DNA of 64,000 bases from assembly GCA_027036135.1 (NCBI GenBank), contig JALVSY010000007.1:438880-502879 (forward strand), in the 5' to 3' direction. A model generated the notes under the pieces. The model saw only the letters and a program-made list of their open reading frames with translations, did no database searches and had not been told where the DNA came from. This DNA is from Pyrodictiaceae archaeon. GTDB taxonomy: Archaea; Thermoproteota; Thermoprotei_A; Sulfolobales; Pyrodictiaceae. This document shows, piece by piece, positions 6,658 through 27,502 of this stretch. Each line of letters starts with the position of its first letter. The first letter of the stretch is position 1. The translations under genes and the position numbers were made by a program.

Positions 6658-7419
6658 ATGAGCTTTAGAGCCATTTATCCCGCGGCTACGAAGTTTAAAT
6701 ATATAGTTCAGACACTTGCAAAGGTGATGGACGAGATACCCTTTGTAGCCACAGCTGAGGGGCTCGAAGTTAAGGCGCTAACGCCTGATAAAACTACAAT
6801 GATAATTTTACGTCTCCCATCAACTGTCTTTGATTCTTTTGAGTTAGCAGAGGAGAAGAAAACCTTCATAGTCAGTGCTGACGAGTTAAATAGGATTGCC
6901 AAGCGAGGTACACGCAATGATATTGTTGAGCTAAAACTTGATGAAGAACATCGTAGGTTAGAGATAAACTTTCACGATAAGAAGACAGGTGTAGTTCGGT
7001 CGTTTTATGTGGCTCTCCGGGAGGGCATAGTTGAGGAGCTAAGTGAGCCTCAAGTGGAACTGAGTGTTACTGCGCGCATGATGGCAGAGGACTTCAAGAA
7101 TATAATTAATGATGCTAAGATAGTCAGTGACGAGGTAGAGTTCAAAACATATGAGGATAAGATAGAGGTTCTAGCTGAAACTACCCAGAAACGCTATCGT
7201 GGTGTCCTGGTGCAGGGAGATCCGCTGCTTAGCTTAGATGTTAGTGGGAATCCTCCTATATCAGCTAAGTACTCTATAGATCTATTGAAGGCTACGCTGA
7301 AGGCGACGAGTGCAGCTGATACAGTAACCTTGCAATATGGAGAATCGCTTCCTATGAGGCTTAGCTTCGATCTACCTGGTGGAGGCATACTCGTGTACTG
7401 GGTGTCTCCTAGAATCTAA
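6658..7419 (+). CDS. pcn: DNA polymerase sliding clamp PCNA
   Basis: This 253-residue protein is an archaeal PCNA clamp that encircles DNA and tethers polymerase, FEN1, ligase and other PIP-box proteins. Recognisable features are the N-terminal FRAIYPAATKFKYIVQTL, the DKTTMIILRLPSTVFDSF strand set of domain 1, the interdomain region near residue 120, and the C-terminal LPMRLSFDLPGGGILVYWVSPRI, where the family ends its second beta sheet. Length is typical. Crenarchaea often encode several PCNA paralogues that form heterotrimers; which subunit this is cannot be told from the sequence alone. Its 3' end overlaps the convergent zinc-motif gene by four bases. Confidence 0.95.
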   Translation: MSFRAIYPAATKFKYIVQTLAKVMDEIPFVATAEGLEVKALTPDKTTMIILRLPSTVFDSFELAEEKKTFIVSADELNRIAKRGTRNDIVELKLDEEHRRLEINFHDKKTGVVRSFYVALREGIVEELSEPQVELSVTARMMAEDFKNIINDAKIVSDEVEFKTYEDKIEVLAETTQKRYRGVLVQGDPLLSLDVSGNPPISAKYSIDLLKATLKATSAADTVTLQYGESLPMRLSFDLPGGGILVYWVSPRI

Positions 7420-7655
7420 CTTCCTTCCAGTTTCCTCAGTAGTTCTTCAAGTGCTTTCTTTGCCTCTTCCTTTGTCTCTGTTACTCTAGGTACTACTCCT
7501 CTTAGTGAAGGAAACCAGGCTGGTCGAGGACACTGGTTTCGTTCTGGACAAGCTAGACAGCAATATGGGCACACACTTCTCTCGGGATGAAGCCAGCATT
7601 GACGCGTAGGTCTGTGTCGTCCACATACATCGCATCTTTCCCAATAGATGCTCAT
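7416..7655 (-). CDS. Small cysteine-rich (zinc-ribbon-like) protein
   Basis: This is an approximately 79-residue protein with cysteine pairs CDVC, CPYCC and CPERNQC in its first 40 residues, together with several histidines, which suggests one or two bound zinc ions. The C-terminal 30 residues are a charged helix (ETKEEAKKALEELLRKL). The frame is open upstream to 7706, but I prefer the ATG at 7655 because the cysteine motif begins right after it and a TATA-like stretch lies near 7690-7700. The family and function are not recognised. It converges on PCNA, with the stop codons overlapping. Confidence 0.6.
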   Translation of the reverse strand: MSIYWERCDVCGRHRPTRQCWLHPERSVCPYCCLACPERNQCPRPAWFPSLRGVVPRVTETKEEAKKALEELLRKLEGS

Positions 7656-7731
7656 TCCCGACCCCAGTACTCCTATTGATGCTTGAGGCAAACTAAAAAG
7701 GAGCAAGGCCTTAAAGTGTTATTAAACAAGT

Positions 7732-7739
7732 CTTATAAG
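7732..7739 (+). promoter_or_regulatory. TATA box before candidate small RNA
   Basis: CTTATAAG is a strong archaeal TATA box about 25 bases before the predicted 5' end (near 7760) of the structured element at 7760-7828. Confidence 0.45.
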
Positions 7740-7759
7740 AATACCATATAGATGGCTGA

Positions 7760-7828
7760 CCGATGATAAGCGGTAATCGCGGCGGGGTATATCTCTTACA
7801 AGAGCCCCGTGGAGTAGGCCGCTCAGAG
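7760..7828 (+). ncRNA. Candidate H/ACA-like guide RNA
   Basis: A GC-rich islet in an AT-rich intergenic stretch folds into one hairpin. The lower stem is AGCGG (7769-7773) with CCGCT (7819-7823). Then comes a symmetric internal loop of nine bases on each side (7774-7782 and 7810-7818). The upper stem is CGGGG (7783-7787) with CCCCG (7805-7809), followed by a five-base bulge, a CTCT/AGAG stem and a TACA loop. An AGA (7825-7827) lies about 15 bases from the loop, as an ANA box would in an H/ACA pseudouridylation guide. A TATA box sits about 25 bases upstream. A clear kink-turn is not visible. Confidence 0.4.
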
Positions 7829-7906
7829 GGATGATGCCGTTAGAGACTTCTCTAGCTATTTATTAGGTGTGTGCTATCCTCTAAGGGGTTAACTGAGGGA
7901 TAAGGG

Positions 7907-8287
7907 ATGAAGCGAATAACCATAGAAATCGATTTCGCGAAGTATAAATCAGTAAAACTTCCTAAGGATGAGGCCGAGAAACTCCTCCAGACACTTACCG
8001 AGATACTGGGTAAGAAGCCCAATGATATACAGGAGACACTTAGGTATATCAAGAACTTTGACGAGTTCTTTGAATATATGAGGAAAAAATTCAAGGACTA
8101 TCTCGCGCCACCGCATAGGGCTGATGACTATATTAGAGGTGAAGCAGTTGTTGACAAAGTTAAGTTGCTAAAAAGGAATAACGAAAAATATGTTATGATA
8201 ATATTTGATAGACGTGTTAAGGAAGACTTGATTAGAAAGGCTTTAGAGCAGCTAGGGTACGAGGTCGAAATAAAGAAGGTATTCTGA
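7907..8287 (+). CDS. Hypothetical crenarchaeal protein
   Basis: I do not recognise this 126-residue soluble protein. It is lysine-rich and appears alpha/beta: an N-terminal strand (KRITIEIDF), two helices rich in charged residues (residues about 20-65), and C-terminal strands with a helix (VMIIFDRRVKEDLIRKALEQLGYEVEIKKVF). The ATG is preceded by GAGGGATAAGGG. A TATA-like ATTTATTA near 7858-7865 would give a transcript start near 7890, supporting the start. It is convergent with the Rpo13-like gene. Confidence 0.65.
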   Translation: MKRITIEIDFAKYKSVKLPKDEAEKLLQTLTEILGKKPNDIQETLRYIKNFDEFFEYMRKKFKDYLAPPHRADDYIRGEAVVDKVKLLKRNNEKYVMIIFDRRVKEDLIRKALEQLGYEVEIKKVF

Positions 8288-8304
8288 TCCAGTTCTTAAT
8301 CAAA

Positions 8305-8556
8305 TTATTTCTTCTTTTTACGCCTCTTTGAACCAACAGTAGGTATAGCCACCGCTTGTAGCGAGGAAATAGCCTCTTCAACGCTAAGTTCTCCGTGCAA
8401 AACCTTTTCTAGGATATCTGTGCGCTTCACCATTGCCTCAAGTAGCGACGCGTTTATGTCGATATCGATCGCCTCTTCTAACTCTTCTCCTTCAGCGCTG
8501 CTGGTCTCACTTGTCCCAGTCTCTTCAGCAATTACCGGCTCCTCTGCCTCGGACAT
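8305..8556 (-). CDS. rpo13: Candidate RNA polymerase subunit Rpo13
   Basis: This 83-residue protein has the three-part layout of crenarchaeal Rpo13, the small subunit in the DNA-entry channel of RNA polymerase. It has an acidic low-complexity N-terminus (residues 1-32, rich in Glu and Ser), a short helix-turn-helix-like core and a purely basic tail (SKRRKKKK). The core LLEAMVKRTDILEKVLHGEL followed by SVEEA aligns by eye with the Sulfolobus Rpo13 segment, keeping a hydrophobic-Met-Lys-x-Thr pattern, a Leu-x-Gly turn and a final Glu-Glu-Ala. This is my recall-based comparison, not a search. A chromatin-associated or unrelated basic-tail protein is the main alternative. It is convergent with the 126-residue hypothetical gene. 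Confidence 0.65.
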   Translation of the reverse strand: MSEAEEPVIAEETGTSETSSAEGEELEEAIDIDINASLLEAMVKRTDILEKVLHGELSVEEAISSLQAVAIPTVGSKRRKKKK

Positions 8557-8635: not shown

Positions 8636-9649
8636 TCAGCTTATACGCAGCATTAATGGAGTATTAATATCGTAGTCGCGGACAACGGCGTAACCTTTGG
8701 GTAGTAAGCCGAGTGTTTCCGTAAGTATATCTATCTCGTCGCGATTATTACTAACAGCTATACTTTCCGCAACATATTTTGCTAGTTTTGGTTCAACTTG
8801 CCGTAATGCTATCTTTGTACCAGTATTAGCCAAGATTGATTTGTCTAGGTCGTCTAGGCGCTGTGTTATCAGTATAAGTGCAAGCCCATATTTCCTTAAC
8901 TCAGTAGCCATGTTCGCTACAATATTTCTCCGTGAATTCTTAGATGCAACAAGATGAGCCTCATCGATTACAAGTACTGCCCTAACGGTTTTTGCCAGGT
9001 CTCTTTCCTTCATAGCTATATATAGTTTTTCGAGAAACAACTCTATGTATAGACTTTGCCACGATCTCTCTCCAATACTTGATAAATCTATTATTACTGG
9101 CTTCTCTGAACCAAAGATAGTATCTATTGAAATATTTGTTTTCGCGAATACTCTTGAGGCAAGCGACTCTACATATGTTGCAACAATATATGCTCGCTTC
9201 TCTCTACTAGCAATCCGTCTCAGTATCTGAGCAACATCAAGTAAAGTAGGCGGTGTTCTTCTCCAAGTACTTGGCTCATTCTCTATTATGCCTTTTGCCT
9301 CGTAAGCGAGAAGTATAGCGTCTTCCAGTAAGCGTTCTTGAAGCGGTCCCAGCTTAAAGAGCGATGATATTAGGGAAGTGATCTCGATTGCTCGTTGCCG
9401 TGGACTTTTTCCATGTAGGTCTAAAGGATTAATGGATGAAGTAGAGGCATCTATGACTATGCTATCGTTTAACAAGTTCTTATACTCACCATGAGGATCG
9501 ATGATAATTACACTCGATTTGGCTGATTTGGCTATCTGAGTAGCTATCCTCGCAGCTGTATACGATTTTCCGGATCCCGATGCCCCGCTAATCACAATGT
9601 GGGGGTTCGTATGCACGCCAATACTTATCTTATTATGAGTGGTGCCCAA
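8636..9649 (-). CDS. HerA/VirB4-like ATPase lacking the HAS barrel
   Basis: This is a 337-residue ATPase of the HerA-FtsK superfamily, whose members are hexameric DNA or protein pumps. Walker A GASGSGKS is at residues 22-29, the IIDPHGEY motif at about 49-56 and Walker B LVIDEAH at about 226-232. It then has the LILITQRLDDLDKSI segment and a C-terminal region typical of the family. It begins almost at Walker A, so it lacks the N-terminal barrel of true HerA. The TTG start (9647-9649) overlaps the upstream membrane protein gene by 25 bases, implying coupling and a membrane role rather than the NurA-HerA end-resection complex. Its proximity to the Ced-like operon is suggestive, but the link is inference. 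Confidence 0.75.
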   Translation of the reverse strand: MGTTHNKISIGVHTNPHIVISGASGSGKSYTAARIATQIAKSAKSSVIIIDPHGEYKNLLNDSIVIDASTSSINPLDLHGKSPRQRAIEITSLISSLFKLGPLQERLLEDAILLAYEAKGIIENEPSTWRRTPPTLLDVAQILRRIASREKRAYIVATYVESLASRVFAKTNISIDTIFGSEKPVIIDLSSIGERSWQSLYIELFLEKLYIAMKERDLAKTVRAVLVIDEAHLVASKNSRRNIVANMATELRKYGLALILITQRLDDLDKSILANTGTKIALRQVEPKLAKYVAESIAVSNNRDEIDILTETLGLLPKGYAVVRDYDINTPLMLRIS

Positions 9650-10410
9650 TCATATGAATACCTACGAGTAATTCGTATGTTCTCGTCACGATACCTCACG
9701 AGAGGAGATTCTATTAGGGCTGCAATAGCTTGGCCTAGTTCAGCCCCCTCTCTATTCCGAAGCATTTCAATTACTTCTATCGTTTCTGCGTCCTTGAGGT
9801 AATATAATAAAAGTACTAATGGAGGATATCGTAACGACGATACAAAGACTAATGAGGAGACTACTTGGAGCAGTGGGATGTCTTGTACTGGTGCTATGAA
9901 TAGATATAGAGGTATTGATACGATATAAAGATATATTATATTAGGTGGTATATGTGGGCTTAGAATCCATAGCAAAAGAGTTAGTATGGCGACATAGATT
10001 AATTGGTTCCTAAAACTTGTACTATAATCTTCTAATATGTTTTTATAATATCTTAGAATATTTATTACGCTAGCTAGGAAACTATCTTTTATATTATTTC
10101 TTTTAATATTAATTATTAGAAGTACTATTAAATATATGATTAGTATTGACTCCGTTATTGATACAGCCATTGTTGGTACTAATGTTGGTAATTGGTTATT
10201 AAAATTTGTTATAAGTATTGTTCTCTCTAATATTTTAAAAAATATTACTATATTCATAATAAATATAAGAATTGTAGCTAATATTGATTTGAGTATTAAA
10301 GCAACGAGAATCCCTATTAAAGGGTATACAATACTAGCGTATTGACTAGGCACGAATAATACAGTAGCGGCAAGGAATAACGAGAGAATAATACTAAGTT
10401 GTTGTCTCAT
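9625..10410 (-). CDS. Polytopic membrane protein coupled to HerA-like ATPase
   Basis: This is a 261-residue protein with about six hydrophobic segments in its first 200 residues, several rich in isoleucine, and a soluble C-terminal tail of about 60 residues (DAETIEVIEMLRNREGAELGQAIAALI and onward). I do not recognise a family. An open frame begins at 10452, but I prefer the ATG at 10410 because it leaves room for divergent promoters with the Lhr gene and directly precedes the first membrane helix. It overlaps the downstream ATPase gene by 25 bases, so the two proteins probably act together, with this one as membrane platform. Confidence 0.65.
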   Translation of the reverse strand: MRQQLSIILSLFLAATVLFVPSQYASIVYPLIGILVALILKSILATILIFIMNIVIFFKILERTILITNFNNQLPTLVPTMAVSITESILIIYLIVLLIINIKRNNIKDSFLASVINILRYYKNILEDYSTSFRNQLIYVAILTLLLWILSPHIPPNIIYLYIVSIPLYLFIAPVQDIPLLQVVSSLVFVSSLRYPPLVLLLYYLKDAETIEVIEMLRNREGAELGQAIAALIESPLVRYRDENIRITRRYSYDWAPLIIR

Positions 10411-10443
10411 TAGCACTCTTCCAAGCTCTGAGGTGAACTGGTA

Positions 10444-13260
10444 GTGCAACAAGATAATGTTTTTTCTCTACTCGACACGCGGCTCTATAAAGTGCTCAGT
10501 AAATATGGATATAGAGAACCTACTCCCATACAGTCGGCAGCAATTCCTTTTATTCTTACTGGCTATAGTGTTCTGATAGCTGCTCCCACTGGGAGCGGAA
10601 AAACAGAAGCAGCTTTGTTTCCTGTAATGTCCATGATACTTAGAAACAGACTCTCCGGGATACGTGCTCTCTATATTACTCCTCTTAAGAGCTTAAACAG
10701 GGACATTTTCCAAAGAATGGCACGTATTGCCGAGGAGGCTGGTTTAAGTCTTAGAGTTAGGCATGGTGATAGCAGTGCGTCGGAGAAAAGAGAATTCTTG
10801 ATGAATCCTCCAGCAATAGCTATTATGACTCCCGAAACTTTCTACTTACTTTTATCCTCGGAGCCTTTCAGGAGATCATTAAGATATTTGGAATACGTAA
10901 TAGTAGATGAAGTTCACGAGCTCTTATCGAGTAAACGTGGTGTAGAGTTATCTCTAGCGATAGAGCGTGTTGATGCTCTTTATTCAAGGAAACACCTAAA
11001 GATTATAGCATTATCGGCAACGCTAAGCGATCCATTTGGTGTTGCGAGGCTCATCATGGGGCATAGAGTATTTAGGGTTATTAATGCAGATAGATTAGTA
11101 AAACGCTATGCAATAGAGGTTGATGTGCCATGCCCTAAGGAATCCTGTTCCGATTCGCTAGAGTCTCTTAATGCTAGAGTGAATTATATAGCTAACAAGG
11201 TGGCGAGTTCTCGCGGAAATGTTTTGCTGTTTACGAATACTCGTGACACAGCAGAGGTGCTCGGCGCTTTACTTAGGAGTAGGCTAGGCAATATTGTCCG
11301 TGTTCATCACGGTAGCCTTAGTAGGGATGAACGAATAGAGAGTGAAACATACTTCCGGGACGGCAAGGTGAGATTGCTTATAGCGACTTCAAGCCTAGAA
11401 CTGGGCATCGATATAGGGCGTGTTGACTTAGTTATTCAGTACTTATCTCCGCGCCAAGCCTCTAGGCTTGTTCAGCGTGTTGGTAGGGCTTCACATAAAT
11501 TAGGCTTAGTATCGAGGGGCATCATAGTTGCATCACCTAACGTTTTTGACATCCTTGAATCAGCTGTTATAGCTGCTAGAGCTATGCGAGGCAACTTAGA
11601 GGACCTCTATATACATATGAATGCACTAGACGCTTTGGTTCATCAAGTTGTGGGCTTGGTTATAGAGAGGGGTTCAATAAAGTTACTAGATGCTTACAAT
11701 ATCATTACACGTAGTAAATTCTATGAAAACCTTGACATAGATCAGTTTATTCAAGCAATCAGTGTAGCAGATTCTGTTGGCATTCTTCGTTTTAATGGCA
11801 ACGAGATTAAGCCTGGACCGCGTAGTAAGAGTTACTACTTCTCTACAACGATGATAACAGAGACTAAGCAATATGATGTAATCGACTCCATTAGTGGTAA
11901 GAAGATAGGCGTACTTGACGAGGAATTTGTCGCAACACTCGATAAGGGTGATGTCTTCGTACTAGCGGGTAGGGTTTGGGAGGTAATAGATATCACAAAT
12001 GATGTTGTGCGCGTAATTCCTCAAAGTAATACAGAGCGATTAATGCCTCCAGCATGGGAGGGCGAGCTAATACCAGTCGAATACGGTGTTGCACGTGAGG
12101 TTGGAAGTATTCTGAGAAGATTTAAGGAAAACAATAATGTTTTAGAGAATTATCCCCTATCCGAAAATGCTAAGGCCCTGGTGAATAGAAAGCTTATGAA
12201 TTATCTCAAAGATATAGGAGAACTACCTAGCGATAGAAGCTGCGTCATAGAGCACTATGGTGACGTCTTCATTATTTATAGTTTCTTGGGGTCTAGAGGG
12301 AATAAGGCTCTTGAGTACCTTATCTCAGCGTACATAGCTGAGATAGAAGGCTTTAATCCATCAACAGCCAGTACGCCCTATGTAGTCGCGGTTCGTCTTC
12401 CATCGCGCCGCTCAGCATCTTATGTTAGACAAATACTGCAAGGGCTAATGATGCTAAGTGATAAAGAAATAATAGAGCTAGTTAAAAGGGCAGTTAAAAG
12501 AAGTAAAATGTTTGAGTGGACTCTCTACAGAGTTAGTGTAAGAAGTGGTGCTATTCAGCGCGAGGTAGTTGATACCACGCTTTTGAAGAGAACACTAAGA
12601 AGATTAGCTGATACCATTCTCGGTGAGGAGGCTTTCAGAGAGATCCTTGTGAGAAAGATTGATATTAATGCGCTCTTACAATTCATTAAGGAGTTAAGAA
12701 AAGGAATACGTAAGTTAAAAGTCGTTGAACTAAGAAATATATCCATTTTAGCAGAGGACGCTGTATCAGAGGCAAGGTTTAGTGACAAGATAATTGCAAA
12801 ACAACTACCATCTACTATCATCGCTGAGGCTATTAAGAGAAGACTATCTCGGAAGGAGGTATACCTAGTATGTCTTATGTGTGGTTCGATTAAGAGAGAG
12901 TTAATCTCGAACATAGAAGATACTCCGAAGTGCGAAGAATGCGGCTCGAGAATGTTAGCACCATTTACCAGCATGGAAGAGGCCAAGAAAATCGCTAATA
13001 TTGTAAGGAAGAGACGCCAGCTAAGAACCCTTACGAAAAGCGAGGCTAGGTTGCTAAGAGAGGCTTATGAGAGGGCAAACATAGTGCTTAATTATGGTAA
13101 AAAAGGTATCGAGGCCTTATCTTGGATCGGCATTGGTCCGTCAACGGCTAGAAGGGTTCTGAAAAAACTTGTATTCGGTGAAGAGGCGTTTTATAAAGCT
13201 CTTATAGAGGCAGAGGTTCAATTTCATAAGTATAAGCATAAGCTTCAAAGAAAGGAATAG
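10444..13260 (+). CDS. lhr: Lhr-type SF2 helicase
   Basis: This is a 938-residue Lhr-family helicase. The RecA1 part has APTGSGKT (residues 47-54), DEVH (155-158) and SAT near 188, and the RecA2 part has RVGRASH near 350. The long C-terminal part is the Lhr-specific winged-helix and beta-barrel region. Near residue 815 is a four-cysteine ribbon (CLMCG ... CEECG), and the end has a helix-hairpin-helix-like stretch (GIGPSTARRVL). Archaeal Lhr proteins unwind DNA or RNA hybrids and have been tied to repair or RNA metabolism. The GTG start is at 10444. It is divergent from the membrane-protein/ATPase pair. Confidence 0.9.
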   Translation: MQQDNVFSLLDTRLYKVLSKYGYREPTPIQSAAIPFILTGYSVLIAAPTGSGKTEAALFPVMSMILRNRLSGIRALYITPLKSLNRDIFQRMARIAEEAGLSLRVRHGDSSASEKREFLMNPPAIAIMTPETFYLLLSSEPFRRSLRYLEYVIVDEVHELLSSKRGVELSLAIERVDALYSRKHLKIIALSATLSDPFGVARLIMGHRVFRVINADRLVKRYAIEVDVPCPKESCSDSLESLNARVNYIANKVASSRGNVLLFTNTRDTAEVLGALLRSRLGNIVRVHHGSLSRDERIESETYFRDGKVRLLIATSSLELGIDIGRVDLVIQYLSPRQASRLVQRVGRASHKLGLVSRGIIVASPNVFDILESAVIAARAMRGNLEDLYIHMNALDALVHQVVGLVIERGSIKLLDAYNIITRSKFYENLDIDQFIQAISVADSVGILRFNGNEIKPGPRSKSYYFSTTMITETKQYDVIDSISGKKIGVLDEEFVATLDKGDVFVLAGRVWEVIDITNDVVRVIPQSNTERLMPPAWEGELIPVEYGVAREVGSILRRFKENNNVLENYPLSENAKALVNRKLMNYLKDIGELPSDRSCVIEHYGDVFIIYSFLGSRGNKALEYLISAYIAEIEGFNPSTASTPYVVAVRLPSRRSASYVRQILQGLMMLSDKEIIELVKRAVKRSKMFEWTLYRVSVRSGAIQREVVDTTLLKRTLRRLADTILGEEAFREILVRKIDINALLQFIKELRKGIRKLKVVELRNISILAEDAVSEARFSDKIIAKQLPSTIIAEAIKRRLSRKEVYLVCLMCGSIKRELISNIEDTPKCEECGSRMLAPFTSMEEAKKIANIVRKRRQLRTLTKSEARLLREAYERANIVLNYGKKGIEALSWIGIGPSTARRVLKKLVFGEEAFYKALIEAEVQFHKYKHKLQRKE

Positions 13261-13284
13261 TTTCACCTACCCCATTCCCGGATA

Positions 13285-13593
13285 TTGTTTCTACGAACAA
13301 AGAATCTACGGGGTAAGTTGAGCGATATAGTGAGTTTCATAAACACACTCACTACCCGGATAGTTACCATAGCATGGGGATTATTCCTTTTAACATGGAG
13401 CATTGGCTGGCTTCTCAAAGGCTCTCCCATACCCTTTATGAGAGTAAAGAGAGCCGGGCAAGACCTAGTTGAGGATGCTGTCTGGGCTGCCTTCTGGCTT
13501 GCACTAGGCTCATCAATATTCGCGCTAATATCATATATTGTTAATATGGTTGTTGGGTCACCAAGCATCAATGTAACCTCGGTACAACCCTAG
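13285..13593 (+). CDS. CedA1-like two-helix membrane protein (VirB2-like pilin candidate)
   Basis: This 102-residue protein has two membrane helices, about residues 27-46 (IVTIAWGLFLLTWSIGWLL) and 66-91, joined by a short basic loop with PIPFMRVKR. The size, the helical hairpin and the position before a large polytopic protein and a VirB4-like ATPase match CedA1 of the crenarchaeal Ced DNA-import system, a protein related to bacterial VirB2 conjugative pilins. Identification rests on topology and context. The loop motif recurs in the N-terminus of the next gene. It is 24 bases downstream of the Lhr gene and 16 bases before the CedA-like gene. Confidence 0.6.
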   Translation: MFLRTKNLRGKLSDIVSFINTLTTRIVTIAWGLFLLTWSIGWLLKGSPIPFMRVKRAGQDLVEDAVWAAFWLALGSSIFALISYIVNMVVGSPSINVTSVQP

Positions 13594-13609
13594 TAGGTGA
13601 TAATAAGCC

Positions 13610-15055
13610 ATGGTAGTACTAAGTCCCTCAGCTCTGCTTTTATTAGCCACACAGATATCTGTACTCACGTACCATGTTGGTGTGCTAATCTACTTGGCTC
13701 CAATACCTATACGTAGTCTAAAGAGGTGGGCACCGCTCCTTATTCAGGATAGTATATGGGCCGTGATACTAGCGCTTTCCTTCTCGGCTCTCCTATATCT
13801 TTCAGACCTTATTGCATCATGGAGTGGATATACGCTTCAGGACGTAGTACTTTATGCAAAATCTCGAATGAGTGCAATACTTACAGCACAATTTATACTA
13901 AAGATGTTTATGATGATGACGTCTATATTTGCATCGGCTTTTAATAAATTCTTCTCCTTTTTCCTAATACCTCTTACACTAAATTTTTATGCACTAATAT
14001 CAGCATTTACAGTAGTAATAATAATAGCGGGTATAGTTATGAGTACTAAGGCCGCGCTAGCTGCACTAGGCATAGTATTGATGTCGTTACCCTTTAGGCT
14101 CGGACGTAATGCAGGTGCATCATTACTTGCATTTAGTCTCGTAGCTAATGCAATGCTACCATATCTACCTATTTGGATTAGCTTCTTCTACCAGGGCCTT
14201 ATACAAGGATATACGAATGTTCATGAACTAAATCATGTATCCCTTTACAAGACCTATGATCTTTGGGGGACAATCTACGGAGAGGCCGGCACATATCCCC
14301 ACGGAGGCTTAATTTTCTTTAATAATACAAATCTCCGTACAACGTTCATATTTAGAATACGGCAAGATGGAAGCTATTACATAATATATCCAGAAGGCAT
14401 ACCTAATGGTACATATATAATATATATAGAATATCTCGGAGCAAAGATAGTAAATCAAGGCTTTATAAATATACCACGAGATCTTAGGCTAACGTACGAC
14501 TTAGATGAAGCACCCTACCGCCTAGATATACACCTAAAAGATTATGTGTTTCTGAACCCTGACGTAGTACTCTTTAGTCAGGATTGCTCAAGTGTAAGAG
14601 TGAATAAAAATACAGATTCTCTATCTGTGATTACGTGCACACCTTCTACAAATTATGTGCATATAGAGCTCTATGTACCAGGTACATGTAGCGTTGAGTT
14701 TAAGACAAAAGGAGGCGATGTATATACAAGTGCCTTGTTCTATAAGCGATGGAGAGGAATAGGGGTACGCATTTACAAGTTCGGCGTGTACGGTGGTGTA
14801 GGTTATCCGATAACAATTGAAATAACTAAAAAAGGTACATGTTATGTTAATTGGGATAAAATTATAGCTGGAAAAATAATTCAGCAAACACCTAATAACG
14901 AGGGTCTCAATTTTAGTACACTAATGTACCTAATAGTATACATGACAGCGCTACCTATGGCAGTGTTCTCGTTCCTTACAATTATGAGCTTAGTAGTTGT
15001 TAGTGTTGCTCGCGCCCTTGGCGCTTCGTACTCACGCATAATATTTGAGCTCTGA
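13610..15055 (+). CDS. CedA-like polytopic membrane protein (VirB6-like)
   Basis: This is a 481-residue membrane protein with about six hydrophobic segments in the first 205 residues, a long beta-rich segment of about 230 residues likely outside the cell (residues about 205-440, with four Cys), and a final membrane helix near 447-472. Gene order and architecture fit CedA, the central channel of the Ced DNA importer, related to VirB6. The soluble insertion is larger than I would expect from the shorter Sulfolobus CedA. The N-terminal 60 residues resemble the preceding CedA1-like protein (shared PIP...KR...D..WA pattern). ATG 13610 follows GGTGATAATAAGCC. Confidence 0.6.
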   Translation: MVVLSPSALLLLATQISVLTYHVGVLIYLAPIPIRSLKRWAPLLIQDSIWAVILALSFSALLYLSDLIASWSGYTLQDVVLYAKSRMSAILTAQFILKMFMMMTSIFASAFNKFFSFFLIPLTLNFYALISAFTVVIIIAGIVMSTKAALAALGIVLMSLPFRLGRNAGASLLAFSLVANAMLPYLPIWISFFYQGLIQGYTNVHELNHVSLYKTYDLWGTIYGEAGTYPHGGLIFFNNTNLRTTFIFRIRQDGSYYIIYPEGIPNGTYIIYIEYLGAKIVNQGFINIPRDLRLTYDLDEAPYRLDIHLKDYVFLNPDVVLFSQDCSSVRVNKNTDSLSVITCTPSTNYVHIELYVPGTCSVEFKTKGGDVYTSALFYKRWRGIGVRIYKFGVYGGVGYPITIEITKKGTCYVNWDKIIAGKIIQQTPNNEGLNFSTLMYLIVYMTALPMAVFSFLTIMSLVVVSVARALGASYSRIIFEL

Positions 15056-15073
15056 AAGGTGTGGTGACTAGGT

Positions 15074-15244
15074 ATGTCTCAAAAAACTGTATTGAGGCTG
15101 AAGCTTCAGACGACATTAAAAATAGCTCTTGTGGCTTCATTAATTGGACTGGTAGCAGCGGTTGCTACAAAAGAAAAATATATATTAATAATATCTATAA
15201 TAAATTTAGTATTATCTGTTTATTTAGCCAATGTTCTTAGGTGA
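15074..15244 (+). CDS. Small two-helix membrane protein (CedA2-like candidate)
   Basis: This 56-residue reading frame begins at ATG 15074, 18 bases after the CedA-like gene, and its stop overlaps the start region of the ATPase gene. It has a basic N-terminus (MSQKTVLRLKLQTTLK) followed by two hydrophobic helices, about residues 17-31 and 36-54, separated by KEKY. It fits the extra small membrane component of Ced loci (CedA2), but at this length homology cannot be judged by eye. GGTGTGGTGACTAGGT upstream could provide a ribosome site. Confidence 0.55.
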   Translation: MSQKTVLRLKLQTTLKIALVASLIGLVAAVATKEKYILIISIINLVLSVYLANVLR

Positions 15245-16598
15245 TATTATGATTATAGTTAGCATAATAGCGATAGTTATATTATTTAATATAGTTCCGG
15301 GATACATAGGTGTTAGTTCATTAATAGATAGAATATTTGGTAGAAAAAAGAGGGAAAGTGGTCAAAGATGTTGTATTAATATAGATAATAAATGCTATTA
15401 TTTATATAGAATATATCGTGATGATTGTATATTAGGTCTTCTTCGAAGCGGTGCACTATTAGAGTTAATGAGGGACTCGAATCTGTCGGGTATATTTGTG
15501 GTTTATGAGAGAGTTCAGCTTCACAAGGCTCTTCGCGAAATTGAGGCAAAAATATTAACATATAGAGTTGAACTTGAACGTAACCCGGATAATTTGCGAG
15601 CAAAGCAACGTCTAGAATTATTAGAATACATCTATAAAGAATTATCTAGATTAAATGATCCGATTAAGCCAACGCTTCTAATAGTGCTAGATAGTGAGGC
15701 AAAGCTTAGTGATATAAAGAAGAAACTATCTATATATAGATGCGGCATAAAGAGTGCTTGTAGTTTTTTACTAAATAGACGTAAGCCAATTATATCACGG
15801 AATTCTATTGCAATCAATATCATCCAAGTATTAAATTATGCCTACTCCTTGCTTGCTCTGCAAAGTAGCTCCGGCTTCTTGATAGGCTATGAGATGCTTA
15901 ATAATACTCCCGTAAAGCTCCCTATGTGGAGTAATAGACTAGGTGCTCTTCATACACTGATTGTTGGACCGAGTGGCAGAGGGAAAACAACGCTTCTTGC
16001 ACGTTTGGTGTTCGAAAGCATTGTTAAAGAAAACTATTGTCTAAAAGTTATAGATCCTAAAGGTGATTTAGAAGAATTGATAGGCAGAATTATGTGGCTA
16101 GGTAACCTAGAAATATATGATAGTAGTAAAACGGATCTAATCAACTTAGACACTTTGCTTGATTGGCCTAGTAAGTGTCGATATAAAGTAGTTATAGGTG
16201 ATGAGGCTTGGCGAGTAATAAGTGAACTAGGCTCCAAGTATGATAAACTAATTAGGTCTGCTAGAAGCTTGGGCATAAACCTTGTATTGGCGTCTCAACA
16301 ACCAGAGGATTTTCCGCAGAGCATGTGGAATAATTCCCATAACTTCATAGTGTTTGGATCATCTAGTCCAAGCTATATTGAGTCCATTAAAAGATTTGCA
16401 AATATATCTGAGGAGGAGGCATCTCAGCTTCTTAGGCTTGGAATAGGTGAGGCATTGCTTAAACACTTCAAATCTATGACGGGTATATTCTTTCGTGCAT
16501 ATACTCCACCGATAACAGTTAAGAATCCGGGAGAAGGGGTTGGGAAGGCTGGGAGAAGGGTGCTAAGCTATGGGCAAGCGATTGATTATCCAGCGTAG
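15231..16598 (+). CDS. CedB-like VirB4/HerA ATPase
   Basis: This is a 455-residue membrane-anchored ATPase. An N-terminal helix (IMIIVSIIAIVILFNIV, residues 6-22) is followed by a basic segment and a central region. Walker A GPSGRGKTT is at residues 246-254, VIDPKGD at about 273-279, Walker B VVIGDEAW at about 320-327 and a sensor stretch LVLASQQPEDFP further on. This matches CedB, the VirB4/HerA-type motor of the Ced DNA importer. An internal ATG at 15249 is an alternative start. The gene overlaps the preceding 56-residue gene by 14 bases and the rpl2 gene by 29 bases, so the import operon reads directly into ribosomal genes. Confidence 0.7.
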   Translation: MFLGDIMIIVSIIAIVILFNIVPGYIGVSSLIDRIFGRKKRESGQRCCINIDNKCYYLYRIYRDDCILGLLRSGALLELMRDSNLSGIFVVYERVQLHKALREIEAKILTYRVELERNPDNLRAKQRLELLEYIYKELSRLNDPIKPTLLIVLDSEAKLSDIKKKLSIYRCGIKSACSFLLNRRKPIISRNSIAINIIQVLNYAYSLLALQSSSGFLIGYEMLNNTPVKLPMWSNRLGALHTLIVGPSGRGKTTLLARLVFESIVKENYCLKVIDPKGDLEELIGRIMWLGNLEIYDSSKTDLINLDTLLDWPSKCRYKVVIGDEAWRVISELGSKYDKLIRSARSLGINLVLASQQPEDFPQSMWNNSHNFIVFGSSSPSYIESIKRFANISEEEASQLLRLGIGEALLKHFKSMTGIFFRAYTPPITVKNPGEGVGKAGRRVLSYGQAIDYPA

Positions 16599-17286
16599 GG
16601 GTAGAGGCACACCACTATATCGTAGCAGGCCGTGGCTCCACCCAGCACCGGCTCGATATCCACCGCTAACACCAGTTACTCTTAGAGGCAGAGTTATAGA
16701 ACTGATACATGACCCGGGGAGATGGGTTCCATTAGCACACATTGTGCTAGAGAACGGACAAGACTTCTGGATACCAGCTGTTGAGGGAATGTATGTTGGC
16801 CAAATCATAGAAATAGGGCCCGAAGCTACACCAAGCAATGGCAACATACTGCCAGTAGGGAGAATACCGGAGGGAACACAGGTAACCAACGTAGAGATAC
16901 GGCCAGGAGATGGCGGGAAGATAGCTAGATCCTCGGGGACCTACGCAGTTATTATTGGAAGAAGTGGAAACAAGACACTAATTCAGCTCCCTAGTGGCAA
17001 AGTAAAAGAAGTGCCTAATGATGCAAGAGCGACTATAGGGGTAATAGCTGGAGGAGGTAGGCTAGAAAAGCCATTACTAAAAGCGGGTGCCTCGTACTAC
17101 AAGTGGAGCGCAAAACCACATGTATGGCCGCGTGTAAGGGGCGTAGCAATGAACGCTGTAGACCATCCACATGGCGGTGGCAGCCACCAGAGCCCGAGCT
17201 TCCCAACAACAGTCTCGCGTAATGCGCCTCCAGGCCGCAAAGTAGGCCACATAGCTGCTAGGTCAACTGGTCGTAAGAAGAGGTAA
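16570..17286 (+). CDS. rpl2: Ribosomal protein L2 (uL2)
   Basis: This is the 238-residue large-subunit protein uL2, which contacts the peptidyl transferase centre. Archaeal signatures are the N-terminal GKRLIIQRRGRGTPLYRSR, the GVIAGGGRLEKPLLKAG stretch and the catalytic-core loop VRGVAMNAVDHPHGGG, whose histidine sits at the functional tip. The C-terminus ARSTGRKKR is typical. It starts inside the end of the CedB-like gene. It is displaced from its usual archaeal place between L23 and L22 and is followed by S19 after 44 bases. Confidence 0.97.
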   Translation: MGKRLIIQRRGRGTPLYRSRPWLHPAPARYPPLTPVTLRGRVIELIHDPGRWVPLAHIVLENGQDFWIPAVEGMYVGQIIEIGPEATPSNGNILPVGRIPEGTQVTNVEIRPGDGGKIARSSGTYAVIIGRSGNKTLIQLPSGKVKEVPNDARATIGVIAGGGRLEKPLLKAGASYYKWSAKPHVWPRVRGVAMNAVDHPHGGGSHQSPSFPTTVSRNAPPGRKVGHIAARSTGRKKR

Positions 17287-17948: not shown

Positions 17949-18491
17949 GTGTCAACTAAGAAGCAGGTTCTAAGACTAAAGTATAATATAACGAGTAAGG
18001 ACTATGATGCAATTTATGCCGAGGAACAACTAGAGAAATATACCGTATCTATAAAGTATATAGATGTATATAATAAGGTGCTTGATTGCGGTTGCGGTAC
18101 AGCACTTTTCATAGAATTCCTAAAAGGTATGAAAAGACTCTGCAACGTGAATTACTACCTATGCCTAGACTTGTCTCCAGGAATGCTGAGACAAGCCAAA
18201 CGAAGAATAAGGAAGCTTGGCTTAGGCTTTCTCGCCGAACTCGTAGAAGCGGACGCAGAGTATTTGCCTCTTCGAGACAAAAGCGTGGAGACGGCTGTAT
18301 CATTCACTGTCATAAATCTGTTGGAAGATAAGACAAAGGGTATTAGAGAGCTCCAACGTGTAACATGTGGCTGTATCCTAGTATCGGTACTAAAGCTTGC
18401 AGAAAAACTCGATATGGTTAGTCTCCGCTTCGGTAAGTATGTAGGTGAAACAAGCAAGGACAAAATATTTCTCAAATGCAATAATGACTAA
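17949..18491 (+). CDS. Class I SAM-dependent methyltransferase
   Basis: This is a 180-residue methyltransferase of the Rossmann-fold class. Motif I is VLDCGCGTALF (residues about 38-48), motif II LCLDLSPGMLRQAKRR, and an acidic motif before LPLRDKSVETAVSF near residue 105 resembles the UbiE/Methyltransf_11 subgroup. The substrate cannot be deduced. It lacks a distinct substrate-binding extension. The GTG start at 17949 follows GAGGGAAGCTT, and a TATA-like AT-rich element lies near 17900-17910. It is convergent with the VWA gene. Confidence 0.8.
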   Translation: MSTKKQVLRLKYNITSKDYDAIYAEEQLEKYTVSIKYIDVYNKVLDCGCGTALFIEFLKGMKRLCNVNYYLCLDLSPGMLRQAKRRIRKLGLGFLAELVEADAEYLPLRDKSVETAVSFTVINLLEDKTKGIRELQRVTCGCILVSVLKLAEKLDMVSLRFGKYVGETSKDKIFLKCNND

Positions 18492-23457: not shown

Positions 23458-24363
23458 ATGTATACAGTTTGTGTGCTATACTCGTCTTCTTCAGTGATAC
23501 GAGAAGCGGTGCACCAAAAATTGACTGCTAAGAAGCGTCGATGCAAGCTAGGTGTAGCGCTAGCGGCATCGTATACGTTAACTGAGCCATCGCTTCTCCT
23601 CAAGACGATAAAGATAGGTGTCCTCGGGAGACTATTAGCAGTGTTTAGAGTCGATAATGTGGTCTTCTTCATAGACCGTGCTGATGCCTGGAAAGAGGCT
23701 AGCCTTGCCAAGCGAATACTAGAATACATGGTTACAGCTCCTTATCTACGCCGATACGTCTATCCCCCTAATGTCCCGGATCTACGCTATGCAGGGGTCT
23801 TGCCCCCGCTTCAGCTTCCTACGCATGGTGTCGGTGGACCACGCGAGGGAGAGATTCGGGAAGCCCTTGTACTTAGACCAGTGAGGCAAGGTGTAGTAGT
23901 GGAAGCAGGGCTGAGTAAGCCAGTACTTGCGAGAACGAATAAGAAGTATAGGAGAGGCCAGAGAGTACTGATACGAATAGAGTCTCTTTCCCCGATATCG
24001 GTAACCCTGTTGCAAAAAACCGATATATACTCGGGGTTCTCAGTCCATATAGAGGAGTCCCTTACAAGGCTTTTACGCAAATATCGTGACAAATACTATG
24101 TTATCGCAACTAGTAGAAAGGGTAACACCATAGATATAGAAAACTTACGTGCCAGGAGCCACTCGGTATGCAATAAAGGCGTACTAGTAGTGTTTGGCTC
24201 GCCTAGTGAGGGCTTATTCGAGCTAGCTGAGCATGAGGGACAGAGACTGACTAGCCTCGTAGACGAGGTTGTGAACACGGTTCCGGGCCAAGGCACACTA
24301 ACAGTTAGGGTTGAGGAAGCTGTAGCAGCAACCTTAGCGATACTTAACCTATTCTTGGACTAA
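23458..24363 (+). CDS. SPOUT-fold RNA methyltransferase (DUF171-type)
   Basis: This is a 301-residue protein of the archaeal/eukaryotic SPOUT group annotated as putative RNA uridine N3 methyltransferase. Features are an N-terminal strand-rich half with LGRLLAVFRVDNVVFF, the conserved YLRRYVYP...LRYAGVLPPLQLPTHG (residues about 90-125), a beta-barrel insertion near 145-180, and the knot-forming C-terminal part VLVVFGSPSEGLFEL ... VVNTVPGQGTLTVRVEEA. In many archaea this gene directly precedes rpl3, as here, consistent with a rRNA target. Substrate assignment is by family only. Confidence 0.85.
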   Translation: MYTVCVLYSSSSVIREAVHQKLTAKKRRCKLGVALAASYTLTEPSLLLKTIKIGVLGRLLAVFRVDNVVFFIDRADAWKEASLAKRILEYMVTAPYLRRYVYPPNVPDLRYAGVLPPLQLPTHGVGGPREGEIREALVLRPVRQGVVVEAGLSKPVLARTNKKYRRGQRVLIRIESLSPISVTLLQKTDIYSGFSVHIEESLTRLLRKYRDKYYVIATSRKGNTIDIENLRARSHSVCNKGVLVVFGSPSEGLFELAEHEGQRLTSLVDEVVNTVPGQGTLTVRVEEAVAATLAILNLFLD

Positions 24364-26403: not shown

Positions 26404-26661
26404 ATGGGATTAGAGATACTCATTAGGCCTGTACAAAGCGAAAAAGCACTAAGGCTAATAGAGCAAAACAATACATTAACATTCATAGTTGATCGTAAAG
26501 CAACAAAACACGATATAAAAAGGGCAATAGAGGAAGCCTTCGGCGTTAAAGTAGAGAGAGTAAATACGTTGATAACGCCAAGAGGAGAAAAGAAAGCTTA
26601 CATAAAACTAGCACCGGGCTATAGTGCCGCAGACATAGCTGCACGGCTAGGAATTCTCTAA
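26404..26661 (+). CDS. rpl23: Ribosomal protein L23 (uL23)
   Basis: This is the 85-residue uL23, located at the tunnel exit, where chaperones and the signal recognition particle dock. The sequence [19 protein letters not shown] followed by [21 protein letters not shown] and a basic [19 protein letters not shown] is diagnostic. It lies 16 bases after L4. In most archaea L2 and S19 would follow; here a 370-base non-coding gap intervenes. Confidence 0.96.
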
Positions 26662-26844
26662 CATATGTTCATCGAATTATTTTCAGACATTACTAGTCGT
26701 TTTGTCTTCCTTCGTCTTTATTATATTCAAGTAGTCTCCTCATAGTCCATGTCTCTGGATTTGTATGCTATCTTGGTGAGCAGGAACACATTCTACGCTG
26801 GTTACTTATGTTTATTAGGGGACGACGTTTTCCTCATCTATTAT

Positions 26845-26936
26845 GGAGCATGCCCGCGCGAGTGCCCCGCGTAATCGGGGCCCCGTGAGCGCGCGGAGGC
26901 TCCACCCCTAGGCGTCAGGCCCCTCGTACATGCTTC
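26845..26936 (+). ncRNA. Candidate structured non-coding RNA
   Basis: This GC-rich block is closed by an eight-pair stem, GGAGCATG (26845-26852) with CATGCTTC (26929-26936). Inside, CCGCGCG (26854-26860) pairs with CGCGCGG (26890-26896), and GCCCCG (26864-26869) pairs with CGGGGC (26876-26881). Between the inner stems A61-G62 faces A88-G89 (numbering by last two digits of 26861 and 26888), which allows tandem G-A pairs next to the lower stem, as in a kink-turn. A TATA-like box lies about 30 bases upstream. It does not fold as a tRNA. An mRNA leader structure for L22 is unlikely because a second TATA box follows. Confidence 0.45.
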
Positions 26937-26966
26937 TTCTCGCCACCTCAGGTCTAGGTATCATTT

Positions 26967-26975
26967 ACTTATTTA
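26967..26975 (+). promoter_or_regulatory. TATA box for the L22-S3 segment
   Basis: ACTTATTTA at 26967-26975 predicts transcription from about 26997, giving L22 a leader of about 35 bases. It gives the downstream ribosomal genes their own promoter. Confidence 0.45.
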
Positions 26976-27031
26976 GGTGAGTACTCTGCTGAGAGGGCAT
27001 CGGGATTACACTCTAGCGTGAGGGGTTAGCT

Positions 27032-27502
27032 GTGCCCACCTGGAAGTACTCAGTAAGGGTTGATGAGGAGCGCTCAGCTAAGGCTATGGTATGGGATGCC
27101 CCGATATCGTATAAGAAAATAGTTGAGCTTGCTAGGCTGCTTAAGGGAATGCGCGTCAATGACGCTAAAGCGTTTCTTGAGAGAGTAGCAGCGGGCAGGG
27201 AACCAGTTCCCGTGAGGAGGTATAGCGGAAAGCAAGCCCATCATCGCGGCCTAGCAGCCAAATATAAGTGGCCTATCGGCAGGTACCCCGTTAAGGCGGC
27301 TAAGATACTTCTCAAGCTCCTAGACAATGCCGTAAATAACGCAGAAGTAAAGGGACTCGATACGGAGAGACTACGAATAACACATATAGCTGTACACAAG
27401 GGCAGGGTTATCAAGAAGTGGATGCCCAGGGCATTTGGGCGCTCATCGCCGCGCTTCCGGAAGTATAGCCACATAGAAATGGTTGTAACGGAGGAGGAGT
27501 AA
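27032..27502 (+). CDS. rpl22: Ribosomal protein L22 (uL22)
   Basis: This is the 156-residue uL22, a tunnel-wall protein. It has the archaeal N-terminus WKYSVRVDEERSAKAMVWDAPISYK (shown in parts: PISYK then KIVELARLLKGM), a central VRRYSGKQAHHRG and the C-terminal beta hairpin RAFGRSSPRFRKYSHIEMVV. The GTG start at 27032 follows GTGAGGGGTTAG. It is followed by S3 after four bases. Confidence 0.96.
   Translation: MPTWKYSVRVDEERSAKAMVWDAPISYKKIVELARLLKGMRVNDAKAFLERVAAGREPVPVRRYSGKQAHHRGLAAKYKWPIGRYPVKAAKILLKLLDNAVNNAEVKGLDTERLRITHIAVHKGRVIKKWMPRAFGRSSPRFRKYSHIEMVVTEEE

What the first reader, a model, noticed from the sequence alone, without database searches (positions are those of the whole stretch)
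13285..16598. Complete Ced-like DNA import operon fused head-to-tail with ribosomal genes
Seen: a two-helix protein, a 481-residue polytopic protein, a 56-residue two-helix protein and a VirB4/HerA-type ATPase are packed with short gaps or overlaps, and the ATPase gene overlaps rpl2 by 29 bases. Established: the crenarchaeal Ced system (CedA, CedA1, CedA2, CedB) imports DNA and is related to VirB6, VirB2 and VirB4 of conjugation machines; in Sulfolobus cedB is not beside cedA. Inference: this is a full Ced set in one operon, co-transcribed with L2 and S19.
Basis: partly seen in the sequence, partly recalled or inferred. Interest (0 to 1): 0.75.

Follow-up and report, generated by a model that had tools for sequence, protein, structure and literature searches.

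The report
Ced DNA-import operon beside ribosomal genes
A heat-loving archaeon carries the genes of a conjugation-like DNA-import machine directly in front of two ribosomal protein genes, and relatives suggest that this neighbourhood is old, may have its own DNA-damage switch, and that the channel protein carries an outer domain missing from the Sulfolobus version studied so far.

Summary
Window 13330-16598 encodes CedA1 (pilin, over NCBIfam's cut-off), CedA (VirB6-like), a 56-aa two-helix protein and CedB (VirB4/HerA-type, CedB clade). cedB overlaps rpl2 by 29 bases. The genome is of the Pyrodictiaceae.

It is not a one-off fusion: cedB abuts rpl2 in 14 of 14 sampled loci of the family that hold both, in 9 of 12 Acidilobaceae loci (Aeropyrum pernix included) and 2 of 2 of a third family. 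Elsewhere ced heads the S10 cluster; in 11 of 13 Sulfolobaceae loci it follows the spc cluster. Here L2-S19 are missing from the S10 cluster at 23.5 kb.

New leads: (1) a Sulfolobus-type damage motif 71 nt before cedA1; (2) a ~200-aa beta ectodomain in CedA: CedA is 444-532 aa in 61 of 61 loci outside Sulfolobaceae and 252-329 in 13 of 13 inside; (3) the small protein stands in the CedA2/VirB3 position.

Co-transcription with L2 is unproven. CedD, a later-described component, is elsewhere in the genome; the split ATPase upstream is not CedD.

The parts
13259..13264 (+). AGTTTC, match to the A(N)TTTC UV-response hexamer of Sulfolobus, 71 nt before the preferred cedA1 start; it overlaps the lhr stop codon
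   Evidence: motif definition from PMC5817253
13330..13593 (+). cedA1, VirB2-like pilin, 87 aa (longest ORF starts at TTG 13285)
   Evidence: NCBIfam NF041797 129.5 bits, cut-off 100; profile of 12 loci hits the A. pernix pilus 8dfu, E 6.6e-33
13610..15055 (+). cedA, VirB6-like channel protein, 481 aa, long form
   Evidence: NF041796 E 1.4e-33 over residues 5-208; AlphaFold2 model pLDDT 87.6
14246..14845 (+). part of cedA coding the beta domain (about residues 213-412), probably outside the cell
   Evidence: secondary structure; fold comparison; length split
15074..15244 (+). 56-aa two-helix membrane protein in the CedA2 / VirB3 position
   Evidence: no family hit (only sub-threshold Pfam hits)
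15231..16598 (+). cedB, VirB4/HerA-type ATPase, 455 aa (possible second start ATG 15249)
   Evidence: NF041017 E 1.4e-21; tree; top fold match VirB4 4ag6, Z 21.8
16511..16524 (+). GATAACAGTTAAGA inside cedB, recurring in other genera: weak candidate for an internal L2 promoter
   Evidence: the matrix does not single it out in this genus
16570..17286 (+). rpl2 (L2), first 29 bases overlap cedB
   Evidence: PF03947 158.5 bits
17331..17798 (+). rps19 (S19)
   Evidence: PF00203 116.9 bits
23458..24363 (+). putative RNA methyltransferase that heads the S10 cluster
   Evidence: 39% identical to the PF02598 protein of L103
24475..25518 (+). rpl3
   Evidence: PF00297
25554..26387 (+). rpl4
   Evidence: 62% identical to L103 rpl4
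26404..26661 (+). rpl23
   Evidence: 70% identical to the ORF after rpl4 in L103; that ORF is named L23 by position and recall, not by Pfam
26662..27031 (.). 370-nt gap where rpl2 and rps19 would stand in the usual S10 order; no clear remnant (best L2 hit E 0.15 over 20 aa)
27032..27502 (+). rpl22
   Evidence: PF00237

Best explanation
This is the chromosomal Ced DNA-exchange machine of a Pyrodictiaceae archaeon, a domesticated type IV secretion relative in the gene order pilin (CedA1, VirB2-like), channel (CedA, VirB6-like), small two-helix protein (CedA2/VirB3 position), motor (CedB, VirB4-like). Shown here: the identity of the pilin, homology of channel and motor, the order, and its conservation. 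Inferred: after DNA damage a Sulfolobus-type promoter just upstream of cedA1 turns the unit on; CedA1 builds a lipid-containing pilus through which DNA from a neighbour cell reaches the CedA pore; CedB, with CedD encoded elsewhere, pulls the DNA in for repair by recombination; the CedA beta domain, carried outside the cell, contacts the pilus, the S-layer or the partner cell. The unit sits at the edge of the S10 ribosomal cluster. In this family L2-S19 stand directly behind cedB instead of inside that cluster. They are probably read both through the ced unit and from a start inside cedB; the shared DNA would help to keep the genes together.
For: CedA1 over the equivalog cut-off; CedA and CedB profile hits. 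A. pernix pilus 8dfu found by the CedA1 profile, E 6.6e-33 (8DFU named in PMC9905601). In the ATPase tree the window protein lies in one clade with the ced-adjacent ATPases used and Sulfolobaceae CedB (44 members, support 0.712; 0.994 when one stray ORF of locus L143 is counted in), apart from CedD, HerA and the Lhr-side ATPase. CedB model (pLDDT 74.1): top match VirB4 4ag6 (Z 21.8, rmsd 2.7, 217 aligned), with DndH 20.7 and HerA 20.3 close behind; R388 VirB4 chains align over 345-358 residues but at rmsd 11-12. Damage motif: a matrix from 9 Sulfolobaceae sites is reached at p<=0.05 in 11 of 16 Pyrodictiaceae, 10 of 10 f4 and 2 of 2 f11 loci; in f1, f4, f9 and f11 loci the hexamer lies 50-90 nt before 21 of 41 annotated cedA1 starts but 0 of 24 rpl2 and 0 of 87 other ORFs of 300 aa or more. 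Synteny. S10 order with the L2-S19 gap.
Against: No expression, pilus or DNA-transfer data exist for this organism here. CedA and CedB score far below NCBIfam's cut-offs (116.6 against 330; 76.7 against 700 bits); none of 20 family genomes reaches the CedB cut-off. The fold comparison does not separate VirB4 from HerA-type motors. Le et al. (PMC5817253, passages) state that the ced loci of S. acidocaldarius lack the hexamer and may have another regulator; only 8 of 13 Sulfolobaceae loci sampled have it 50-90 nt upstream. The matrix fails in 5 of 16 Pyrodictiaceae, 10 of 11 f3 and 10 of 10 f8 loci. The L2 promoter candidate in the window's own genus is no better than other cedB windows (48 of 88 controls score as high). 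The role and side of the beta domain rest on a model, hydropathy and weak fold matches.
Confidence: 0.8

Rival explanations
1. One reading: cedA1-cedA-orf56-cedB-rpl2-rps19 is one transcription unit, so the import machine is expressed with ribosome synthesis (or L2/S19 rise with DNA damage).
For: 29-base overlap cedB/rpl2 in the window's genus, -35 to +83 nt in all 14 Pyrodictiaceae loci that hold both genes. In the window the 45 bases from -60 to -15 before rpl2 hold nothing better than 6 of 8 positions of a TATA consensus, no more than before other genes.
Against: Own damage-type promoter motif before cedA1. A TTAAA box 25-75 nt before rpl2 in 7 of 9 f3 loci; a matrix from 6 of these beats all 88 cedB control windows in 4 of 16 Pyrodictiaceae loci and 1 of 2 f11 loci, which suggests a separate L2 start there. 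Ribosomal and damage-induced genes would be expected to need different control.
Confidence: 0.3
2. The ribosomal neighbourhood has no functional meaning: ced happened to land at the edge of the S10/spc cluster and has been carried along because that region is rarely broken up.
For: The link is not seen in f8 (0 of 10), f2 (0 of 3) and 2 of 13 f9 loci. Ribosomal clusters are generally stable (established knowledge).
Against: The junction recurs despite rearrangement: in f1 L2-S19 stand behind cedB away from the S10 cluster; in 4 f3 loci (L089, L093, L095, L098) the methyltransferase (with L3-L4-L23 in 3 of them) lies on the other strand upstream of cedA1 while cedB still abuts L2; f9 has ced at the spc/cmk end instead.
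Confidence: 0.5
3. It is part of an integrated conjugative element that exports its own DNA, not a domesticated import system.
For: Order B2-B6-(B3-like)-B4 resembles conjugation operons; CedB is VirB4/HerA-like.
Against: Same chromosomal place beside rpl2 (and mostly lhr) across the family, with housekeeping genes on both sides, and no tRNA found in window 1-31000. Relaxase and integrase were not searched for.
Confidence: 0.04

Closest known systems
Ced system of Sulfolobaceae (Saccharolobus, Sulfolobus)
   Same: CedA1, CedA and CedB homologues; a two-helix ORF directly after cedA (13 of 13 f9 loci); A(N)TTTC 50-90 nt before cedA1 in 8 of 13 f9 loci.
   Different: CedA here is 481 aa with a beta domain (f9: 252-329 aa, 13 of 13); cedB is in the unit (in 0 of 13 f9 loci is it within 300 nt of cedA); the ribosomal neighbour is L2-S19 instead of the spc/cmk side.
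Ced locus of Aeropyrum pernix (pilus structure 8dfu, PMC9905601)
   Same: CedA1 pilin (L089 CedA1 equals the 8dfu chain over all its 84 residues); long CedA (452 aa); cedB directly followed by rpl2.
   Different: No small ORF between cedA and cedB, no significant damage motif (p 0.149), and methyltransferase-L3-L4-L23 on the other strand upstream.
pCF10 prgH-prgI-prgJ (VirB6-VirB3-VirB4; PMC12857230, passages read)
   Same: Small two-helix protein between the VirB6- and VirB4-like genes, overlapping the latter.
   Different: 56 aa against 117 aa; no sequence similarity shown.
Ted system of Thermoproteales (PMC9905601, passages)
   Same: VirB2-, VirB6- and VirB4-like components on the chromosome.
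   Different: According to that paper the components show no recognisable sequence similarity to Ced and the pilin is cleaved; not compared here.

Membership tests
Ced system | CedA1 pilin | tested here: met
   NF041797 129.5 bits over the cut-off of 100; 8dfu hit E 6.6e-33
Ced system | CedA homologue with six or seven membrane helices beside cedA1 | tested here: met
   NF041796 E 1.4e-33 over residues 5-208; seven hydrophobic segments
Ced system | CedB homologue (VirB4/HerA ATPase) | tested here: met
   NF041017 E 1.4e-21, CedB clade, VirB4/HerA fold
NCBIfam equivalogs Ced_CedA and DNA_import_CedB | curated score cut-off | tested here: not met
   116.6 against 330 and 76.7 against 700 bits; 0 of 20 family genomes reach the CedB cut-off
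Ced system | CedD co-occurring with CedB | tested here: inconclusive
   G000:C16:200667 groups with CedD hits of other genomes (support 0.878, a second own ORF, C30:282225, falls in the same group); both are below NF053655's cut-off
Ced system | imports DNA after damage | not testable with these tools
   needs a DNA-transfer assay
CedA2 (NF041798) | profile match | tested here: not met
   window 56-aa protein: 0 families at E<=10; three ORFs of other loci (f8, f1, f4) also miss it; four Sulfolobaceae ORFs from the same position match at E 2e-5 to 3e-13, these too below the cut-off of 80 bits
CedA2 (NF041798) | two-helix ORF directly 3' of cedA | tested here: met
   57 of 75 judged loci have one; 2 of 209 behind unnamed ORFs of 300 aa or more
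VirB3 | two membrane helices | tested here: met
   hydropathy
VirB3 | gene next to virB4 | tested here: met
   14-nt overlap with cedB, or a 4-nt gap with the second start
VirB3 | 10-15 kDa | tested here: not met
   56 aa, about 6 kDa
VirB3 | sequence profile | tested here: not met
   no VirB3 family among the Pfam hits of the 56-aa protein at E<=1
Sulfolobus UV-response promoter | A(N)TTTC at -44 to -39 from the transcription start | tested here: inconclusive
   hexamer present 71 nt before the start codon; transcription start unknown

The most novel reading that the evidence does not exclude
Outside Sulfolobaceae the Ced machine is a minimal four-gene type IV system (VirB2-VirB6-VirB3-VirB4 equivalents) whose channel carries its own surface-exposed recognition domain, doing the job that Ups pili do in Sulfolobaceae; Sulfolobaceae lost the domain. 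The unit is damage-induced, and read-through makes L2 and S19 rise with it, tying ribosome supply to repair.
Probability: 0.2. Interest if true: 0.82.

Novelty: new variant of a known kind. Interest (0 to 1): 0.6.

Why it matters
Ced genetics comes from Sulfolobaceae, where in the loci sampled cedB is apart and CedA is short, and where Ups pili bring cells together. The other Thermoprotei sampled have a longer CedA with a probable outer domain, often a compact unit and a link to ribosomal genes. That makes two open questions testable: what replaces Ups in these lineages (the CedA beta domain is a direct candidate), and what CedA2 does (its place beside the VirB4-like gene suggests a VirB3 role). 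The shared promoter motif suggests that the DNA-damage response known from Sulfolobus is older than that family.

Tried and rejected
CedD upstream: I first took the ATPase beside lhr (window 8636-10452, minus strand) for CedD because it hits the CedD profile, and my marker set carried that label. The tree puts it in a separate clade (19 members, support 0.999) and another ORF (C16:200667) with CedD, so it is rejected as CedD. The label 'CedDc' means this Lhr-side family plus other ATPases; in three f3 loci (L091, L092, L097) it was the better-scoring label of the ATPase behind cedA, which I counted as cedB by position (L092 is in the CedB clade; L091 and L097 were not in the tree).

Frameshift there: the window ORF pair lacks 13 bases that same-genus locus L081 has, before the Walker A region. 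The nearest relative's contig ends too early to compare, so sequencing error, real damage and a split gene are not told apart.

Sequence proof for the small protein as CedA2: the direct profile search failed. Profile-profile scores f1-f8 (23.1) and f8-f9 (19.7) exceed 60 of 60 column-shuffled controls each (maxima 17.7 and 18.6), but the probabilities are only 56% and 20%; f1-f9 directly is 2%. Cross-family HMM scores are mostly only a little above local shuffles, and one of 20 pairs is below. The position rule was set; behind some named genes it is also met (VWA 2 of 10, orf83 1 of 14, CedA1 1 of 75).

Fold of the beta domain: Foldseek gave no hit at E<=0.001. VIA-align gave one Z above 8 (9.3 over 79 residues); the next rows, Z 6-7.6, mix glycoside-hydrolase beta-sandwiches with Ig/CnaB-like domains, among them pilins and the S-layer protein SlaB. 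No family is claimed; VirB6 is not among the 50 rows shown in either call. The domain was not predicted alone.

TATA-box scoring with a simple consensus did not separate genes. Ups genes, relaxase and integrase were not searched for. Literature: six searches of the open library; nothing in their listings pointed to the ced-ribosomal link or the long CedA, and I read passages of four papers only (PMC9905601, PMC11868833, PMC5817253, PMC12857230). The 2016 PNAS paper that (as I recall) first described Ced is not held, so mention there cannot be excluded.
Full report
WHAT IS THERE. NCBIfam names the first CedA1 above its cut-off, and relates the second to CedA (residues 5-208) and the fourth to CedB, both well below the cut-offs; the 56-aa ORF has no family. 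L2 and S19 pass Pfam cut-offs. Upstream is an Lhr-type helicase (10444-13260).

WHOSE GENOME. The window lies on G000:C7 (genome 2.2 Mb in 40 contigs). Families are numbered by the tool (f1 = the window's). Names come by equal contig length: f1 contigs bear the titles Pyrodictiaceae archaeon (8491 bases, as L080), Pyrodictium sp. and Hyperthermus sp.; f3 Acidilobaceae; f9 Metallosphaera, thus Sulfolobaceae; f8 Zestosphaera; f4 Staphylothermus and Desulfurococcaceae. The titles are not strict: contigs of f10 and f11 are also titled Pyrodictiaceae, and one of f2 Desulfurococcaceae. G027 (f3) is Aeropyrum pernix: its CedA1 contains the whole 84-residue chain of 8dfu, the A. pernix pilus.

HOW COMMON. 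The CedA1 profile matches 177 of 229 genomes of the class. I fetched one or a few loci per genus, not all 177. In the sample (which looked for nine marker genes), cedB abuts rpl2 (-35 to +83 nt) in 14 of 14 f1 loci that hold both; 2 f1 loci are cut before cedB; the second contig of G181 (L082) also has the junction. It does so too in 9 of 12 f3 loci (-122 to +20 nt) and 2 of 2 f11 loci. In f4, 8 of 8 loci with enough sequence (2 are cut) have the RNA methyltransferase 150-315 nt after cedB, and L3 follows in the 7 that reach it; Pfam identities for one of them. f5 has this in 1 of 2 loci, one more f3 locus has the methyltransferase 1.06 kb after cedB, f10 has the block within 1.3 kb in 2 of 2, f7 has it 0.8 kb after cedA (no cedB recognised between) in 1 of 1. 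In f9, 11 of 13 loci have cmk directly before cedA1 (-13 to +121 nt), with L15-SecY-adk before it (Pfam for one locus). f8 (0 of 10), f2 (0 of 3), f13 (0 of 1 with enough sequence, 1 cut), f14 (0 of 1), 2 f3 loci and 2 f9 loci show none; f12 is cut; in f6 no cedA was recognised. So ced borders the S10 or spc ribosomal cluster in eight families.

HOW THE 'FUSION' AROSE. In the window the S10 cluster continues at 23458: RNA methyltransferase, L3, L4, L23, then 370 nt without a clear L2 or S19 remnant, then L22 and further ORFs of that cluster (ORFs after L22 named by eye). Compared with f4, L2-S19 are out of the cluster and stand behind cedB. In several f3 loci the methyltransferase-L3-L4-L23 block lies on the other strand upstream of cedA1. 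The direction of change is inferred from the usual S10 order (established knowledge).

PROMOTERS. Le et al. 2017 (PMC5817253, passages) showed that A(N)TTTC, at -44 to -39, is needed for the UV-inducible ups promoters. AGTTTC stands at 13259-13264, 71 nt before GTG 13330. Nine hexamer-anchored Sulfolobaceae sites from 8 of 13 loci (one locus gave two) made a 16-position matrix. Outside Sulfolobaceae it is reached at p<=0.05 against shuffles in 11 of 16 f1, 10 of 10 f4, 2 of 2 f11, 1 of 2 f13, 1 of 11 f3, 0 of 10 f8, 0 of 3 f2 and 0 of 2 f5 loci, and not in the one locus each of f6, f10, f12 and f14; the f7 locus and two cut loci were left out. In f1 all 16 best sites lie 50-90 nt upstream. Control in f1, f4, f9 and f11 loci (f9 being the training family): the hexamer lies at that distance before 21 of 41 annotated cedA1 starts, 0 of 24 L2, 0 of 87 other long ORFs, 2 of 26 cedB, 2 of 41 cedA, 1 of 21 lhr, and 3 of 15 starts of the methyltransferase gene after S19. 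Against: the same paper says that the S. acidocaldarius ced loci lack it. For rpl2, a TTAAA box lies 25-75 nt upstream in 7 of 9 f3 loci; a matrix from 6 of these beats all 88 control windows in 4 of 16 f1, 1 of 2 f11, 2 of 6 f4 and 1 of 1 f5 loci, while the window does not (48 of 88 as good). GATAACAGTTAAGA at 16511 matches (3 mismatches allowed) in 5 of 12 f1 loci outside the closest relatives; few positions in cedB reach that.

CEDA. With 64 sequences AlphaFold2 gives pLDDT 87.6: helices to residue 208, strands 218-408, a last helix 435-469. By helix count and basic loops the beta part faces outside (inference). Complete CedAs are 444-532 aa in 61 of 61 loci outside f9 and 252-329 aa in 13 of 13 f9 loci (2 cut loci left out; lengths are of the longest ORF). 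Only the window's CedA was modelled; that the extra length is the same domain elsewhere is inferred from the alignment. Since f12-f14, outside the order, have the long form, loss in Sulfolobaceae is the simpler history. Between the window and its two closest loci the beta domain changes faster than the N-terminal helices (dN 0.048 against 0.026; 0.080 against 0.033) but under purifying selection (dN/dS 0.14 and 0.11). Fold comparison gives only common beta-sandwich matches. Wu et al. 2025 (PMC11868833, passages) write of an absence of Ups genes in other Crenarchaea; hence the idea that this domain takes over partner contact. That is a hypothesis from one loss event.

THE SMALL PROTEIN. A 40-80-aa hydrophobic ORF directly after cedA exists in 57 of 75 judged loci: f1 16 of 16, f4 10 of 10, f8 10 of 10, f9 13 of 13, f7 and f10-f14 together 8 of 9. 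In f3 (12), f5 (2) and one f10 locus cedB follows directly; in f2 (3) there is none; 3 loci could not be judged. Behind unnamed ORFs of 300 aa or more it occurs in 2 of 209 cases. Four Sulfolobaceae ORFs at this position match the CedA2 profile, the window's does not. Profile comparison links f1 to f8 and f8 to f9 above 60 of 60 shuffles, at modest probability. I call it the CedA2-position protein, probably its counterpart. PMC9905601 (passages) says that CedA2 is not conserved among species; by position it is widespread. PMC12857230 (passages) gives the VirB3 hallmarks: two membrane helices, gene next to virB4, and in pCF10 the order B6-B3-B4 with overlap, as here; but the usual size of 10-15 kDa is not met.

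MOTORS. Window CedB groups with Sulfolobaceae CedB, and its model matches VirB4 best, closely followed by HerA-type motors. The best CedD candidate is C16:200667, which groups with the CedD hit of G182; a shorter ORF, C30:282225, falls in the same clade. The ATPase beside lhr is a third conserved family, here split in two ORFs.

HOW IT LIKELY WORKS. See Best explanation; pilus formation, import and the CedB/CedD division of labour are carried over from PMC9905601 and PMC11868833 and were not tested here.

VERDICT. A real Ced unit and a new variant of a known system. The ribosomal link is genuine and found in eight families; I saw no mention of it in the passages and listings named above. Its function is open.

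Noticed in passing
window 8636-9649 and 9625-10452, minus strand: HerA/VirB4-like ATPase with an N-terminal membrane domain, divergent from lhr, split in two overlapping ORFs; a single 609-aa ORF in same-genus L081, which has 13 more bases before the Walker A region. It belongs to a conserved third ATPase clade beside Lhr, distinct from CedB, CedD and HerA.
   Followed up: partly
window 6658-8556: PCNA, a 126-aa ORF and an 83-aa minus-strand ORF form a block with the Lhr-side ATPase and Lhr in several families.
   Followed up: partly
window 26662-27031: Gap in the S10 cluster where L2 and S19 are expected; both genes lie 9-10 kb upstream behind cedB.
   Followed up: yes
window 17949-18491: Small methyltransferase after S19; the UV hexamer lies 50-90 nt before 3 of 15 homologues.
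   Followed up: no
L268 (G182, f1, 1.84 Mb): CedD hit apart from the ced unit; AGTTTC stands about 34 nt before its first possible start codon.
   Followed up: no
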